Position numbers and translations under genes: made by a program. A model generated the notes under the pieces. That model did no database searches. It was not told where the DNA came from and saw nothing but the letters and a program-made list of their open reading frames with translations. A DNA stretch of 64,000 nucleotides from Gemmatimonadota bacterium. GTDB taxonomy: Bacteria > Gemmatimonadota > Gemmatimonadetes > Longimicrobiales > Gaopeijiaceae. This document shows, piece after piece, positions 39,062 to 47,924 of this stretch; the first letter of the stretch is position 1; every line of letters starts with the position of its first letter. The stretch covers positions 1 to 64,000 of the forward strand of contig JAJCZZ010000053.1 of the NCBI GenBank assembly GCA_029262115.1, read 5' to 3'.

Positions 39062-41419
39062 ATGGATGCCTCCTCCCACGCCCGCGAATCCAAGCCCGAC
39101 TTCATCCGGCAGATCGTTGCCGAACATCTCGAAGAGGGCCGGTACGACCAGGTCGTAACCCGCTTTCCCCCGGAGCCGAACGGCTACCTGCACATCGGGC
39201 ACGCGAAGGCGATCTGCACGAACTTCGGCATCGCCGAGGAGTTCGGCGGCCGCTACCACCTCCGCTTCGACGACACGAACCCCGAGACCGAGAACGAGGA
39301 CTTCGTCCGGGCCATCCAGGACGACGTCCGCTGGCTGGGCTTCGACTGGGGCGACCATCTCTACTTCGCATCGGACTACTTCGAGCGGATGTACGACTCC
39401 GCGCTCGTGCTCATCCGGAAGGGGCTGGCGTACGTGGACTCGTCGTCCGAGCAGGAGATCCGGGACGCACGCGGCACGGTAACCGAGCCGGGACGGCCCA
39501 CGGCGTATCGGGACCGCACGGTCAAGGAGAACCTCGATCTGTTCGAGAGGATGCGGGCGGGCGAGTTCCCGAACGGGGCGCACGTACTTCGCGCGAAGGC
39601 GGATCTCGAGTCGCCGAACATGATCATGCGCGACCCGGTCCTCTACCGGATCCGGCACGCATCGCACTACCGCACCGGAGACGACTGGTGCATCTACCCG
39701 CTCTACGACTACGCCCATTGTCTCGAAGACGCGTACGAGGGTATCACGCACTCGCTGTGCACGCTCGAGTTCGACAACAACCGGGAGATCTACGACTGGC
39801 TGCTCGAGAACGTCGGCTTCGAGGAGCCCCGCCCGCATCAGTACGAGTTCAATCGGCTTACGCCCGACTACACGGTCGTGTCCAAGCGCCGGTTGATCCG
39901 GATGGTCGAGGAGGGACTCGTCGATGGGTGGGACGACCCGCGGATGCCGACGCTGGCGGGCCTGCGTAGGCGGGGTGTGCCGCCCGAGGCGGTGCGGCGC
40001 TTCACGGAGATGGCCGGTCTGGCCAAGACCAACGCGCGGATGGACATCGGCAAGTTGGAGTTCGCCATCCGTGATACGCTGAACCCGGTCGCACCCCGGC
40101 TCATGGCGGTGCTCGACCCGCTCAAGGTGGTCCTCACCAACTATCCAGACGGGCCCGGCGAGGTCATCGAGGCGCCCCTGTATCCACACGACGTGCCGCT
40201 CGAAGGAACACGGCCGGTGCCATTCGGACGCGAGGTGTGGATCGAGCGGGCGGACTTCTCCGACGATCCGCCCAAGGGCTTCCGGAGGCTCGTGGCGGGC
40301 GGCGAGGTGCGGCTGCGCTACGCCTATGTCGTGCGGTGCGACGAGGTCGTCCGGGACGACGCGGGACGCGTGACCGAGCTACGGTGCAGCTACGACCCGG
40401 ACACACGCGGCGGCGACACGCCGGACGGGCGGAAGGTAAAGGGGACCGTTCAGTGGGTGTCAGCCGAGCACGGCCGCGACGCGGAAATGCGTCTGTACGA
40501 TCGACTCTTCACCGAGGCGAATCCCGAGGCCGCGGCCGGCCAGGACGGCGACTTCCTGGACTTCCTGAACCCCGAGTCGCGGACGGTCGTGGCCGGCGCG
40601 TGGGTCGAGCCGTACGCGCTCGAAGTGGCGGACGACGAGCGCGTGCAGTTCGAGCGGACCGGGTACTTCTGGCGGGATCCGGTGGACGGTCGTGGCGACG
40701 CGCTGGTCTACAACCGGATCGTGACCCTGAAGGACACGTGGACGAACCGCCGAGAGACGGGCGCCGCCCCGGGTGGAGGAGGGGACGGTGGGCGGTCCAC
40801 CTCGGGCGCCCGCGCCACCACCTCGACGAAGCACGTGCCCGGCGAGGACCGCAGCGCCGCCCGTGAGGCCGATCCCGAACTCGCCGCCCGCATGGAGCGA
40901 TACACGAAGGCGTGGGCGCTGAGCGACGAACAGGCCGATGTCCTGACCGGGACGAGGGCGGGGAGCGACTTCTTCGAAGAGGCAGTGGCCGAGCACCCGG
41001 ACCCCGTCGGCGTGGCGACCTGGATGGTGAACGACGTGCGCAGCGTCCTGACCGACGACGGTGTGACGGTGCTCCCGTTCGACGGCGTGGCCCTCGGGCG
41101 CCTCGTCGGGATGGTGGCGCGCGGCGAGATCTCGCGGCGGGCGGCGAAGGACGTTCTGGCCGACATGGCCGAATCGGGAGAGGAGCCCGACGCGATCGTG
41201 AAGCGTCTCGGGCTCGCGAAGATGGACGACGTCGAGGCGCTGGGCCGTGTGGTGGACACCGTCCTCGAGGAGTGGTCGGACAAGGTCGAGGCCTACCGGG
41301 CCGGCAACCGGAACCTGATCGGCCTGTTCGTGGGCCAGGCCATGAAGGCCACGGGCGGGGCGGCCGATCCGAAGACGGTGCGGAAGCTGCTCACCACTCG
41401 CCTGGAGGGCGGCACGTGA
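39062..41419 (+). CDS. glnS: Glutaminyl-tRNA synthetase with C-terminal YqeY-like domain
   Basis: The 785-residue protein has the GlnRS HIGH box (H44-I-G-H47 in FPPEPNGYLHIGHAKAI), the KMSKS-equivalent VSKRR (273-277), DDTNPETENEDF, and the anticodon-binding beta barrels. After about residue 600 a Gly/Ser linker leads into a ~170-residue GatB/YqeY-type helical domain (ADPELAARMERYTKAWAL ... NRNLIGLFVGQAMKATGGAADPKTVRKLL). Such GlnRS-YqeY fusions are known; the tail is thought to help bind tRNA-Gln. Its stop overlaps the gltX start by 4 bp. Confidence 0.95.
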   Translation: MDASSHARESKPDFIRQIVAEHLEEGRYDQVVTRFPPEPNGYLHIGHAKAICTNFGIAEEFGGRYHLRFDDTNPETENEDFVRAIQDDVRWLGFDWGDHLYFASDYFERMYDSALVLIRKGLAYVDSSSEQEIRDARGTVTEPGRPTAYRDRTVKENLDLFERMRAGEFPNGAHVLRAKADLESPNMIMRDPVLYRIRHASHYRTGDDWCIYPLYDYAHCLEDAYEGITHSLCTLEFDNNREIYDWLLENVGFEEPRPHQYEFNRLTPDYTVVSKRRLIRMVEEGLVDGWDDPRMPTLAGLRRRGVPPEAVRRFTEMAGLAKTNARMDIGKLEFAIRDTLNPVAPRLMAVLDPLKVVLTNYPDGPGEVIEAPLYPHDVPLEGTRPVPFGREVWIERADFSDDPPKGFRRLVAGGEVRLRYAYVVRCDEVVRDDAGRVTELRCSYDPDTRGGDTPDGRKVKGTVQWVSAEHGRDAEMRLYDRLFTEANPEAAAGQDGDFLDFLNPESRTVVAGAWVEPYALEVADDERVQFERTGYFWRDPVDGRGDALVYNRIVTLKDTWTNRRETGAAPGGGGDGGRSTSGARATTSTKHVPGEDRSAAREADPELAARMERYTKAWALSDEQADVLTGTRAGSDFFEEAVAEHPDPVGVATWMVNDVRSVLTDDGVTVLPFDGVALGRLVGMVARGEISRRAAKDVLADMAESGEEPDAIVKRLGLAKMDDVEALGRVVDTVLEEWSDKVEAYRAGNRNLIGLFVGQAMKATGGAADPKTVRKLLTTRLEGGT

Positions 41420-44216: not shown

Positions 44217-44704
44217 GCCGGACTCGAACTTCCGCCCCGTGTCCGCTCGAGGCTCGGCCCTGCTACCAGGCCGGGACGTTCGGCGCCCTTCGGCTCGCAG
44301 GCACGCTCAACGAAGACACGAAACGACTGGGGTCGCCCTCACTGGTGTCCAAGAGAGTATGGCGGGAATACTACGGGTGAGTATCAACGGATGTATCGTG
44401 CCCGCAGAGGGCCGCCCCCCCGGAGTCGTACGAGCGAATCCGACGGAGTCCCTTCCGTCCTGTACGCTATGGCCTCCTCCGCCGGGCTTGAGAAGCCTCT
44501 ACCGCCCTCGAACCCCGTGCTACGCCTACGCGGTGAAGACAGCGGAAGGAGAGGGTTCCCTCGGTAGGTAAGCCAAGAGGAGGCCAAGTGTATCTTGGCC
44601 GAATAATAGCTCAGTTCCGCCTGGCCGTGCCCCCGACCGCGGGGAATGGGCGGACCGTGTACGCTGCAGCCCTCGACCGGGGTCAGTCCGCAGATTATCT
44701 TGCA
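44217..44704. other. Gene-free boundary between core genes and the accessory island
   Basis: These 488 bp hold no gene I can support. Because tadA often precedes the SRP RNA gene, I looked for the conserved GGAA-tetraloop domain and did not find it. Near 44217-44245 the minus strand has a tRNA 3'-end-like string (AAGTTCGAGTCC), but the T stem does not pair. GGCCCTG-ctac-CAGGCC (about 44257-44273) can form a short hairpin. GC falls within this stretch, so the island edge probably lies here. Confidence 0.4.
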
Positions 44705-45364
44705 TCATGGCAGCAAGTCCCGCAGGTCCTCGGCCTCTGCAATGCCCGCGTGAACTCCCCGGTACCCGACGAACGTCGGGGTCATCCGAATCCCGAGCTT
44801 TACCGCCAGCTCCTCGTCCGAACGCAGGCGCGCGCGAGCTTGGTCAGAGGCCATGCATGTTACCAACTGACCTGGCGCTGACATTCCGGCGCTTTCGGCT
44901 TCGACGAACCAGTCGGCCGTGTCACTCTGCCACCTGTCAGTGGTTAGGAGGTGCTGGTGCATCTCACTGAACTCATCGGCGAGATCGGCACAAATGGCCG
45001 CCAACGCGGCTGATTCAGCGTACGGATGAAGCAGTCTCAGAGGAAGATGCCGATGGATCAGGGTCGCGTCCTCCAAGGCTGCGACCGCCTGAATCGTCGT
45101 TTCGGCCCGACGACAGTAGGGGCATTGGTAGTCAAAAAACTCAATAAGTACCCTTGAGGCGGCCGTCGGTTCTGGCCCGGTAGGGGCCAAAGATGACCAG
45201 TTCTCCGCGATCAATTCCCTTGTAGCCCGTTGCTGGACAAGGTCGCCGAGCCAACCTCCCAACGGCCCGCGAGGCGAAGCCAAGGCAATCAACACGAATC
45301 CTAAAACGGCCACATTGACAACCTGATCTAATTTGCCAGCACGGTGATTTTCGTTGTTATCCAC
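44705..45364 (-). CDS. Membrane-anchored DsbA-like thioredoxin (CPYC)
   Basis: The 219-residue protein has a short polar N-terminus, one membrane segment (about residues 13-30) and a DsbA/thioredoxin domain: VLIEFFDYQCPYCRRAETTIQ (C81-P-Y-C84), a helical insertion as in DsbA, and the cis-Pro region GIRMTPTFVGYRG. This group forms or reshuffles disulfides in the periplasm. It starts with GTG 95 bp downstream of the six-cysteine peptide gene on the same strand, without a terminator between. The peptide is therefore a plausible substrate. Base composition is less GC-rich than in core genes. Confidence 0.85.
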   Translation of the reverse strand: MDNNENHRAGKLDQVVNVAVLGFVLIALASPRGPLGGWLGDLVQQRATRELIAENWSSLAPTGPEPTAASRVLIEFFDYQCPYCRRAETTIQAVAALEDATLIHRHLPLRLLHPYAESAALAAICADLADEFSEMHQHLLTTDRWQSDTADWFVEAESAGMSAPGQLVTCMASDQARARLRSDEELAVKLGIRMTPTFVGYRGVHAGIAEAEDLRDLLP

Positions 45365-45459
45365 GTGTATGTCTCAACGCCTTGAGCGCATGGTTACGGT
45401 GATCTTGGCACATTCATCTTGAGGCGGCGGGGGCTCGCCAGTTGATTTCGGCTGCGGAG

Positions 45460-45660
45460 CTAGCAGCCCCGTCCGGACTGCCCGGAGTCGTCGCAGTCCC
45501 AGTAGTAGCACCCACCCGCGACACACATTTCGCAGACCTCGCCCGTGCTGGCTGTTACGTCATCGCAATTGCCATCCGCCGCCGCCGGTGCGACAGCGAA
45601 GGTCGCAGTGCCGATCATGACACCGAGGACCAGAAACAGCTTCCGCAAAAGGTTATTCAT
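45460..45660 (-). CDS. Small secreted six-cysteine peptide
   Basis: The 66-residue precursor starts at an ATG (45660) with a strong GGAGGT site 6 bp upstream. It has a classical signal peptide (MNNLLRKLFLVLGVMIG ... APAAA|DG, cut after residue 28). The predicted mature peptide is 38 residues with six cysteines at positions 4, 15, 18, 23, 28 and 38, plus an acidic, Gly/Tyr/Trp-rich composition and a C-terminal Cys. Three disulfides are possible. It matches no peptide family I know. The next gene on the strand is a DsbA-like oxidoreductase, and across the divergent promoter lie a secreted beta-propeller and a regulator. A longer in-frame start at 45714 exists but lacks a ribosome site. Confidence 0.7.
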   Translation of the reverse strand: MNNLLRKLFLVLGVMIGTATFAVAPAAADGNCDDVTASTGEVCEMCVAGGCYYWDCDDSGQSGRGC

Positions 45661-45737
45661 GTGAAGACCTCCTTGAGATTGTGAGGGCTGACGCGGCCCC
45701 CGCCGCTTCGACATAATCGTGGGTCCTGCACCCCCCA

Positions 45738-45753
45738 GCCTTCAGCTGAAGGC
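45738..45753. promoter_or_regulatory. 16-bp perfect palindrome in the divergent promoter region
   Basis: GCCTTCAGCTGAAGGC is a perfect 16-bp palindrome lying between the six-cysteine peptide gene and the beta-propeller gene. On the minus strand TTATGT, a possible -10, lies about 20 bp closer to the peptide. On the + strand TTGAAG (45844-45849) and TACTTT (45865-45870) with 15-bp spacing precede the propeller. The palindrome could be the operator of a dimeric regulator. Confidence 0.45.
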
Positions 45754-45892
45754 CAAGGATTTCAGGGGACGGGTCCATGAGTGGCTTTAGTTGCGAAAAC
45801 CACACGCGCGTCGGCTGGTGCTCTTGCCATGGCGGTCGCCTAGTTGAAGAGTTCGAGGGTCGGATACTTTGCCCTCAGCAAGGTGGGTGCGA

Positions 45893-47104
45893 ATGCATCG
45901 GGATCGTCGGACTGGCGGTCGCGTAACGTGGCTGGTTGCTGCGTTCGCGCTGCTACCGTTTGCGTCGACCGCCTCGGGTCCGGCCCCTGTCGTACGCCTC
46001 CCTCCACCTGATTGGTTGTTGGATGAGACTCCCAGCCTCTCGCTGGGTGGCCCGCAAGGCGGTGGTTCGGCGGCAGGGGAGTTCCTTTGGATCCGTGACG
46101 CGTTCTTACTTCCCTCCGGTTCGGTCGCTGTGCTTGATGGGGGTTCTGGAGAAGTGCGGGTCTTCGATCTCGATGGGCGAGTGACCGGCCAAGTCGGTGG
46201 AATGGGTGATGGCCCTGGCGAATTTCGGTATTTGGCATCGGGCCGGGCCCTCGGCGGCGATACGCTTCGGATCTTCGATCTGACATCTCAACGCGTCACG
46301 GACCTGACCATAGAAGGCACGGTCATCAAGACCGTGCCCGCCCTGAGGGGTAGGTCAGGACTTCCGAGGTTGGTGGGAAGGCCGTCAGAGGCGTCAGAGG
46401 TTGGCGGAGTGCCGCACGCACGGATCAACCTCACCACGATTGAGCGTGCTCGACGTGGAACCGGCACCAATCGCGATGAGTTGGTCGTGGGCCTGTACAC
46501 TGCCGAGGGAGCCACGACGGCACGGGTCGTACAGGCGGGTCCGAGCTTCACCGTGAGAGAGGGTCAGCGTTCCCTGACCCGACCGGTCCCCTTCGCTCCT
46601 CAGGCGTTGGTGGCGCTCGGTGATGGCGTCGCAGTAATCGGTAACACCCATCGCGCGTCGTTCGACATGATCGACTTCACCGGCAAGCGTATCGGCCGGT
46701 TTCAGGCGAGCGGAGTTTCGAGGTCGGCAACGGAAGGGGACTGGTCCGAGTTCCGCACTCGTTTCTTGGACGAGGCCGAATCCACGATGCGTCTCCCAGG
46801 GGTCGGTGAGGTGAGCGGCTCGGACCTTCACCGGCGCTTCCTGGCGGAGACGCCCCGTGGTCGAAGGCATCCCCTGTTCTCCGAAGCCCGACTGCGCGGC
46901 AACGAAGAGCTCTGGGTCCGAGTGGCCCAAGCTGAACCCGGCGAGCAAGAGTGGTGGGTCGTCACGACGGGGGGGGTCGTTGGGCGGGTCACGTTCCCGG
47001 TTAGCTGGACGCTGCTCGACGCCGGGGTCGCTCACGTCATCGTGACCGTAAAGGACGAACTGGACGTCGAGTCCGTCCACGTGTATCACCTCACGAGACG
47101 ATGA
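45893..47104 (+). CDS. Secreted six-bladed beta-propeller protein
   Basis: The 403-residue protein (ATG at 45893, AGGTGGG site upstream) has a signal peptide (GRVTWLVAAFALLPFASTASG). It has propeller blades of the NHL/6-bladed type: AFLLPSGSVAVLDGGSGEVRVFDLDGRV, then GMGDGPGEFRYLASGRALGGDTLRIFDLTSQRV, and later VALGDGVAVIGNTHRASFDMIDFTGKRIG. The GxGPGEF signature marks the family. Such propellers bind ligands or proteins outside the inner membrane. It overlaps the AraC-type gene by 4 bp and diverges from the peptide/DsbA pair. Confidence 0.8.
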   Translation: MHRDRRTGGRVTWLVAAFALLPFASTASGPAPVVRLPPPDWLLDETPSLSLGGPQGGGSAAGEFLWIRDAFLLPSGSVAVLDGGSGEVRVFDLDGRVTGQVGGMGDGPGEFRYLASGRALGGDTLRIFDLTSQRVTDLTIEGTVIKTVPALRGRSGLPRLVGRPSEASEVGGVPHARINLTTIERARRGTGTNRDELVVGLYTAEGATTARVVQAGPSFTVREGQRSLTRPVPFAPQALVALGDGVAVIGNTHRASFDMIDFTGKRIGRFQASGVSRSATEGDWSEFRTRFLDEAESTMRLPGVGEVSGSDLHRRFLAETPRGRRHPLFSEARLRGNEELWVRVAQAEPGEQEWWVVTTGGVVGRVTFPVSWTLLDAGVAHVIVTVKDELDVESVHVYHLTRR

Positions 47105-47898
47105 TCGGTGCGACTGGCGGGAACGTCGGGGGACGTGAGGTCGCCGTATGGGTGCCGTCCGAGACTTCCCTGTGGCGGTTGCTGCAAGCCGACCTAAAGG
47201 AGATCGGGATCAAGTGGAGGGTGTATGATAACGGATCGACCCAGAACGCCTGGGGTTCGGCGGTTGGTCCAAGACTGCTCCTGATCAACTCTGCTCGCGA
47301 GGCGGGGTGTGCGAGCGCGCTCCGTGGGCGAAGCGCCATTGCGTATGCTGTGGCAGCGCCCGAGCTGTTTCGAGCAATGGGAGCTCTTCCGCAGATCGAC
47401 TTCGTTTTCGTCGGGGAGGTCGAGCGCCTTCATGGGCTGATCAAAGAATGGGAGTCGTGGGTTCGGTGGCCGATTGGGAGGACCGACTCTGCCGCTCTGA
47501 CATCGGCGTTTAGGGTTCTTGCAGAGCACCCGTCGCAGATCGCGGACCGTCCGCGATCGATCTCAGCGGTTGCTGATCGAGTTGGGTGCTCACGGGGTTA
47601 TCTCGCGCAAACTGCTCGTGCGCACGGGATTGATCTTCGGCGCCTGATCGACATCCAGTTGACCGGTTGCGCGCTCTGGTTGAGAAACGAACGCACGGTC
47701 TCTTGGGAGGTGATCGCCTATCGCCTCGGCTACCGTAGCCCAGGTGGCCTCACGGAGTTGTTCCGCCGGACAATAGGGGTCGTTCCGTCGTCGTCTGGGC
47801 CGAAGGGGACGGAGTTGCTTGAAGCGGTGCGGGCCGATGCCCTGGCACCCGCACGCCGGGCTGCAGGGATGGCCGCTCTTCGGTGGAAGAGCGGATAG
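47101..47898 (+). CDS. AraC-type regulator with an unusual N-terminal domain
   Basis: The 265-residue protein has a C-terminal AraC HTH pair (about residues 152-235): SISAVADRVGCSRGYLAQTARAHG and VSWEVIAYRLGYRSPGGLTELFRRTIGVVPS. The N-terminal ~120 residues form an alpha/beta region (REVAVWVPSETSLWRLLQADL ... FVFVGEVERLHGLI) that lacks the cupin of classical AraC and also lacks a clear phospho-acceptor Asp pattern. It may be a degenerate receiver-like sensor. Its ATGA overlap with the propeller gene suggests co-translation and control of this same locus. Confidence 0.8.
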   Translation: MIGATGGNVGGREVAVWVPSETSLWRLLQADLKEIGIKWRVYDNGSTQNAWGSAVGPRLLLINSAREAGCASALRGRSAIAYAVAAPELFRAMGALPQIDFVFVGEVERLHGLIKEWESWVRWPIGRTDSAALTSAFRVLAEHPSQIADRPRSISAVADRVGCSRGYLAQTARAHGIDLRRLIDIQLTGCALWLRNERTVSWEVIAYRLGYRSPGGLTELFRRTIGVVPSSSGPKGTELLEAVRADALAPARRAAGMAALRWKSG

Positions 47899-47924
47899 TC
47901 CTCTTGGCGCGTCTCTTTCCCCCC

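What the first reader, a model, noticed from the sequence alone, without database searches (positions are those of the whole stretch)
44705..47898. Candidate new system: six-Cys peptide, DsbA-like oxidase, beta-propeller and AraC-type regulator
Four genes form two divergent, tightly coupled arms: (peptide, DsbA-like) and (propeller, AraC). All but the regulator are predicted exported or membrane-anchored. The simplest reading is a secreted disulfide-rich peptide, its folding catalyst, an extracellular propeller that could bind or process it, and a regulator that controls both arms. Bacteroidota have loci pairing small exported peptides with 6-bladed propellers (NVEALA-type), but the peptide here is different and the phylum is probably different. 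The stretch is less GC-rich than its surroundings, consistent with transfer.
Basis: partly seen in the sequence, partly recalled or inferred. Interest (0 to 1): 0.78.

Follow-up and report, generated by a model that had tools for sequence, protein, structure and literature searches.

The report
Cysteine-peptide cassette with disulfide enzyme
A small mobile gene set, repeated across a poorly studied bacterial phylum, makes fast-changing secreted peptides held together by disulfide bonds, along with what looks like their own bond-forming enzyme, often fused to a propeller-shaped partner; what the peptides do is unknown.

Summary
The host is a Gemmatimonadota genome. The four genes lie as described and form a 3.7-kb insertion between tadA and nhaC, which are 77-208 bp apart in six relatives.

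I searched only with the DsbA-like protein and then looked at the neighbours. Of 45 close subfamily members, 44 have a six-bladed NHL-type propeller within 2 kb. Under strict criteria 36 have a small Sec-exported Cys-rich ORF nearby. In 14 the DsbA-like and propeller domains are one protein. More distant DsbA genes give 16/79 and 12/79. Searches starting from peptide profiles land on the same loci.

The peptides match no Pfam or NCBIfam family. Cys numbers are even in 60 of 64, and they are acidic. Mature parts evolve fast in some groups. The usual order is peptide-propeller-DsbA or peptide-DsbA-propeller on one strand. The window's divergent order is unusual, and its AraC-type gene does not recur, so the regulator is not core.

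Best reading: a Sec-exported precursor is oxidised by a dedicated membrane-anchored DsbA-like enzyme, with the propeller as docking platform. The peptide's purpose remains unknown. I found no description of this cassette in the open papers searched.

The parts
45460..45660 (-). Precursor of a secreted six-Cys peptide (66 aa; signal about 1-28, mature about 38 aa: DGNC...GC; Cys spacing C-x10-C-x2-C-x4-C-x4-C-x9-C)
   Evidence: ORF with RBS; profile A6 of relatives matches it and other cassette peptides; no Pfam or NCBIfam family
44705..45364 (-). DsbA-like thiol oxidoreductase with N-terminal membrane anchor, CPYC active site (C81, C84), Thr-cisPro (T195-P196) and an extra invariant Cys pair (C125, C170)
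   Evidence: Pfam DSBA E=1.9e-12; alignment A1; PDB relatives by profile: 3gyk, DsbA-like, ScsC, BdbD
45893..47104 (+). Exported six-bladed NHL-like beta-propeller (ATG start; an upstream TTG at 45869 is possible)
   Evidence: AlphaFold mean pLDDT 78.6, pTM 0.77; Foldseek top hits are NHL domains of Thin, Brat, TRIM71; profile hits to NHL proteins
47101..47898 (+). AraC-type helix-turn-helix regulator, overlapping the propeller stop by 4 nt; local passenger or regulator, not core
   Evidence: HTH_18 E=8.4e-7; no homologue at other cassette loci
44217..47924 (.). Inserted segment between tadA (ends 44216) and nhaC (begins 47925), absent in relatives
   Evidence: tadA and nhaC are 77-208 bp apart in six relatives

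Best explanation
This is a mobile peptide-maturation cassette. Step 1 (inferred from the signal sequence): a small precursor is exported by Sec and trimmed to a 38-residue acidic peptide. Step 2 (inferred from linkage, Cys parity and characterised precedents): a dedicated membrane-anchored DsbA-like enzyme on the periplasmic side forms, and perhaps corrects, its three disulfides, with genomic DsbB as a likely electron acceptor. Step 3 (inferred from 14 natural fusions and the Trx-NHL structure of NHLRC2): the NHL propeller docks the peptide against the CXXC site, or is the partner onto which the folded peptide is loaded. Step 4 (open): the matured, fast-evolving peptide is released or stays in the periplasm as a competition factor, signal or propeller ligand. 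Shown here: conserved co-occurrence and fusion, an intact CXXC, exported peptides with even Cys counts, patchy distribution and insertion. Not shown: redox activity, peptide expression, binding, end function.
For: Loci were chosen by DsbA similarity alone: 44/45 have a propeller within 2 kb and 36/45 a strict-criteria Cys peptide, against 16/79 and 12/79 for lower-scoring DsbA genes (Fisher p about 1e-18 and 9e-13). At least three more peptides appear with relaxed criteria. Fusions: (15 at score >=150; the tree needs 3 label changes). Reverse test from peptide profiles. Even Cys number in 60/64 non-redundant peptides, p=4e-14; only 3/64 have positive net charge. Coding constraint plus fast mature regions: mature pN/pS 0.10 to about 1.3 (1.75 for one pair with only 8 substitutions), DsbA 0.20-0.44. 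Peptide is nearly always the first gene. Own genome holds two more cassettes (L068, L081) and one DsbB. Precedents: TmcD, a DsbA-family enzyme, makes the TMcin disulfide (PMC13252029); NHLRC2 has its Trx domain at the propeller cup (PMC6107167).
Against: No dedicated exporter, protease, immunity or outer-membrane secretion gene recurs. Nothing shows that the peptide leaves the cell. Cassettes without a propeller exist (7 of order peptide-DsbA), so the propeller is not always needed. The window's propeller is closer in sequence to stand-alone propellers. Propellers are very numerous in these genomes, so some co-location is expected, though 44/45 and fusions are not. The peptide model is poor (pLDDT 56), so no fold is claimed.
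Confidence: 0.7

Rival explanations
1. The matured peptide is a competition factor (bacteriocin-like), the cassette being a minimal maturation unit for it.
For: Fast mature region with conserved signal and Cys frame; tandem paralogues (L052, L061, L182, L200, L218); mobile context such as a relaxase beside cassette L127; characterised bacteriocin systems carry a DsbA-like gene.
Against: Peptides are acidic (mean net charge about -5), unlike most membrane-active peptides. No immunity or transporter gene recurs.
Confidence: 0.3
2. The peptide is a small disulfide-rich subunit or ligand of the propeller, as in amine dehydrogenases where a Cys-rich small subunit sits on a propeller heavy subunit; the DsbA-like enzyme assembles the complex.
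For: Propeller next to or fused with the peptide's presumed oxidase; a propeller lies within 2 kb in 44 of 45 high-scoring cassettes. The amine dehydrogenase parallel is from general knowledge.
Against: No residue but Cys is conserved in the mature peptides, so no cofactor Trp; the propellers are six-bladed NHL-like, not seven-bladed; no MauE-type or radical SAM gene recurs.
Confidence: 0.25
3. The peptide is a secreted signal whose propeller is receptor or processing partner, with regulators such as the local AraC-type gene responding.
For: Exported peptide and propeller together; AraC-type gene coupled to the propeller in the window.
Against: The AraC-type gene is absent from the other cassettes; no sensor kinase or other regulator recurs.
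Confidence: 0.15
4. Peptide thiols bind metal or buffer redox stress; the DsbA-like protein is a metal-stress (ScsC-like) enzyme.
For: The profile relates the DsbA-like protein to ScsC and metal-resistance proteins among others.
Against: Even Cys counts in 60/64 fit full pairing; no metal transporter or sensor recurs.
Confidence: 0.1
5. Chance neighbours in genomes full of propellers and spurious ORFs.
For: Propellers are very abundant (up to 264 first-look candidates per genome).
Against: 44/45 against 16/79, 14 fusions, no peptides in 153 kb of control DNA, reverse searches, coding constraint.
Confidence: 0.02

Closest known systems
TMcin gene cluster (tmcD, DsbA-family) in staphylococci, PMC13252029; also pediocin PedC and glycocin oxidoreductases
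   Same: Small exported peptide whose disulfide is made by a DsbA-like enzyme of the same cluster (shown experimentally for TmcD)
   Different: Those have ABC transporters, proteases and escort proteins, one or few disulfides and no propeller; here Sec signal, 6-10 Cys, propeller often fused to the oxidase, Gram-negative hosts
NHLRC2 / SOQ1 (thioredoxin-NHL proteins), PMC6107167
   Same: Thioredoxin-fold domain N-terminal to a six-bladed NHL propeller; the active site faces the propeller cup
   Different: Trx8/TlpA-like with CC(I/V)NC motif and no conserved operon in bacteria; here DsbA-like with CxxC, membrane anchor and linked Cys-rich peptides
Bacteroidota NVEALA peptide next to six-bladed propeller
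   Same: Small exported peptide beside a six-bladed propeller
   Different: No NVEALA family hit in 59 peptides; the constant partner here is a DsbA-like enzyme
DsbA-like / ScsC / BdbD / Com1 oxidoreductases
   Same: Fold, CXXC and cis-Pro of the enzyme
   Different: Those are general or stress oxidoreductases, not tied to a hypervariable peptide or fused to a propeller
Helicobacter DsbI (PMC4597128 abstract)
   Same: Dsb-pathway membrane protein with a propeller
   Different: DsbB-like redox partner, not a DsbA-like enzyme; no peptide gene

Membership tests
DsbA-like thiol oxidoreductase (Pfam DSBA) | Score above Pfam cut-off | tested here: met
   47.8 bits against 25.6
DsbA-like thiol oxidoreductase (Pfam DSBA) | CxxC and cis-Pro loop | tested here: met
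   Both Cys and the Thr-Pro invariant in 26 members
DsbA-like thiol oxidoreductase (Pfam DSBA) | Oxidase or isomerase activity | not testable with these tools
   Needs biochemistry
Bacteriocin/RiPP cluster with dedicated oxidoreductase (TMcin type) | Precursor peptide plus DsbA-like gene | tested here: met
Bacteriocin/RiPP cluster with dedicated oxidoreductase (TMcin type) | Dedicated transporter and leader protease | tested here: not met
   No such gene recurs near the cassettes; peptides carry Sec-like signals
Bacteriocin/RiPP cluster with dedicated oxidoreductase (TMcin type) | Antimicrobial activity | not testable with these tools
   Needs assay
NHLRC2/SOQ1 Trx-NHL proteins | NHL-type six-bladed propeller | tested here: met
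NHLRC2/SOQ1 Trx-NHL proteins | Trx8/TlpA-like domain with CC(I/V)NC motif | tested here: not met
   DsbA-type domain with CxxC
NVEALA peptide family | NVEALA-type family match | tested here: not met
   No Pfam or NCBIfam NVEALA hit among 59 peptides
Methylamine / quinohemoprotein amine dehydrogenase | Cofactor Trp in small subunit | tested here: not met
   Only Cys is conserved in mature peptides
Known anti-phage defence system | PADLOC model match | tested here: not met
   No hit

The most novel reading that the evidence does not exclude
An undescribed class of mobile systems in Gemmatimonadota (with peptide-DsbA relatives in Bacteroidota, Rhodothermota and Pseudomonadota) in which hypervariable, acidic, disulfide-rich secreted peptides are matured by a dedicated DsbA-NHL-propeller enzyme that recognises each peptide family, giving an evolvable peptide arsenal or signalling repertoire.
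Probability: 0.4. Interest if true: 0.87.

Novelty: new variant of a known kind. Interest (0 to 1): 0.74.

Why it matters
It links a peptide family with no match in Pfam or NCBIfam to a specific folding enzyme by co-occurrence and natural fusion, in a phylum with few cultured members. It gives a direct handle on what the numerous six-bladed propellers of Gemmatimonadota can do, and points to a possible dedicated catalyst for making multi-disulfide peptides. One peptide-DsbA pair lies in a named strain (Oleiagrimonas soli 3.5X, L131), so the core claim can be tested.

Tried and rejected
tRNA- or repeat-mediated integration: no tRNA near, no convincing border repeats. Rfam: nothing at the locus. 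The first related-loci query with the full DsbA alignment failed because no stretch was conserved enough. First-look peptide hits in the family at E around 0.01-1 were mostly in long frames, hence chance; only those in short frames near DsbA were followed. AraC as a core gene: rejected. Structure of the peptide: model too poor to use. Plasmid collection: only ordinary DsbA hits covering at most 35% of a fusion protein. VKOR as oxidant: none found in the genome. 'NVEALA' is in no held paper. Record titles calling some contigs Gammaproteobacteria were not trusted: the same contig (L048 = L107) comes from a genome that the genome search places in the window's own family.

Full report
WHAT IS THERE. 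The window carries, between tadA (ends 44216) and nhaC (starts 47925), two divergent gene pairs: a 66-aa peptide precursor and a DsbA-like gene on the minus strand, and a propeller and an AraC-type gene on the plus strand. The DsbA-like protein passes the Pfam DSBA cut-off. The peptide matches no family. The propeller has only a weak Pfam match, but its AlphaFold model (pLDDT 78.6, pTM 0.77) matches NHL six-bladed propellers in the PDB, as does its family profile. The segment is about 60-64% GC in a 67-68% region.

IT ARRIVED AS A BLOCK. The order gltX-lexA-tadA is kept in most of the relatives examined. In six of them nhaC follows tadA, convergent as here, after only 77-208 bp between the aligned parts. 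In the window 3.7 kb with exactly these four genes fill that gap. No border repeats or tRNA explain the mechanism. Codon scores of the four genes are also low in a simple codon model.

THE TRIO RECURS. A peptide search in the own genome gave a weak hit (C40, E=0.18) that proved to be a small Cys-rich exported ORF followed by a propeller and a DsbA-like gene. I then fetched loci chosen only by DsbA similarity, plus controls: propellers without a DsbA neighbour, ordinary DsbA genes of the same family, and DsbA genes of other phyla. A fixed rule for small exported Cys-rich ORFs (signal-like stretch, RBS match of at least 4/6, at least 5 Cys) found one in 34 of 48 subfamily loci and 15 of 20 phylum-wide loci, but in 0 of 11 propeller-only loci over 153 kb. 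By subfamily profile score, loci at or above 200 bits (45, one contig counted twice) have a propeller within 2 kb in 44, a peptide in 36, at least one in all 45, and a one-chain DsbA-propeller fusion in 14. Loci below 150 bits have 16/79 and 12/79 (Fisher p about 1e-18 and 9e-13). Several loci lacking a strict peptide have one under relaxed rules (L040, L049, L063). The 'control' DsbA loci that do carry peptides look like low-scoring members of the same thing.

REVERSE TEST. Profiles made from peptides alone, searched over 249 genomes each, land beside a DsbA-like or propeller gene in nearly all cases: 10 of 11 contigs for the CC-type peptides, and all but two weak hits for the window-type peptides. 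Many of these contigs supplied the profiles, so this shows specificity more than new discovery.

ANATOMY. The usual order on one strand is peptide-propeller-DsbA (15), peptide-DsbA-propeller (12) or peptide-[DsbA=propeller] (12); the window's divergent order is seen once. On the DsbA tree, 'fused' needs three changes, so fusion arose, or was undone, more than once. No other gene recurs around the cassettes except integrases and transposases. The AraC-type gene is not found at other cassette loci. The enzyme has an N-terminal membrane anchor, an invariant CxxC, an invariant Thr-Pro and a second invariant Cys pair. The genome has one DsbB and no VKOR. The own genome carries at least two further cassettes (L068, L081).

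THE PEPTIDES. In 60 of 64 non-redundant peptides the mature part has an even number of Cys, mostly 6 or 8 (p=4e-14 against parity by chance; relatedness not corrected). Mean net charge is about -5 and only 3 are positive. Even counts fit full disulfide pairing rather than free thiols or metal sites; acidity is unlike typical cationic antimicrobial peptides. In close relatives the signal is conserved while the mature part changes fast with the Cys kept: mature pN/pS runs from 0.10 to about 1.3 (one pair with 8 substitutions gives 1.75), against 0.20-0.44 for DsbA. The low values in some pairs show that these are real, constrained genes; the high values in others fit relaxed or diversifying selection. 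These are uncorrected counts on short genes. Tandem copies occur (L052, L061, L182, L200, L218).

RANGE. All high-scoring loci are Gemmatimonadota by GTDB kinship or record title, apart from a few contigs binned as other phyla. Patchy presence, transposases and a relaxase beside one cassette (L127; titled Bryobacterales, 91% DsbA identity to a Gemmatimonadetes copy) point to mobility; misbinning cannot be excluded for L127. Peptide-DsbA pairs without a propeller occur in the named strain Oleiagrimonas soli (L131) and, as two tandem peptides, in a Bacteroidetes contig (L118).

MECHANISM. I propose that the DsbA-like enzyme is the peptide's own oxidase or isomerase and that the propeller presents the peptide to it. 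Support: linkage, fusion, Cys parity, and two outside precedents. TmcD, a cluster-encoded DsbA-family enzyme, makes the TMcin disulfide (PMC13252029). In NHLRC2 the thioredoxin domain's active site faces the cup of a six-bladed NHL propeller (PMC6107167). From general knowledge, Thr before cis-Pro with CPYC also occurs in DsbG, which would fit proofreading of multi-disulfide peptides. What the peptide finally does is open; competition factor, propeller subunit and signal are the main candidates.

NOVELTY. Neither the peptides nor the DsbA-NHL fusion are named in Pfam, NCBIfam or PADLOC, and the open-access papers searched did not describe them. Subscription papers were not searchable. It works like a dedicated disulfide-maturation cassette but lacks the transporter and protease of known ones, so I file it as a new variant.

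Noticed in passing
L127:3644-7841: A MobC-like gene and a relaxase (Pfam Relaxase E=6e-24) lie directly beside a peptide-DsbA-propeller cassette in a contig titled Bryobacterales, suggesting a mobile carrier.
   Followed up: partly
L118:5155-5780: Two tandem 8-Cys exported peptides upstream of a DsbA-like gene in a Bacteroidetes contig.
   Followed up: partly
L131:5526-6534: Peptide plus DsbA-like gene without a propeller in Oleiagrimonas soli, a named strain that could serve as an experimental host.
   Followed up: partly
L061:1485-3572 and L182:2221-2697: A second peptide type with strongly conserved leader (LNxLAxxTILVGG) and CC...CCGxxC frame, in tandem copies, shared by Gemmatimonadota, Rhodothermales and Pseudomonadota.
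   Followed up: partly
L273, L283, L289 (between tadA and nhaC): In three relatives the tadA-nhaC gap is about 1.3-1.4 kb, so this spot may be a recurrent insertion site.
   Followed up: no
window 39062-41419: GlnRS-like ORF of 785 aa with a long C-terminal extension that looks like a YqeY-type domain (by eye only).
   Followed up: no
window 45725-45766: Imperfect palindrome (73%) in the divergent promoter region between peptide and propeller; possible regulator site.
   Followed up: no
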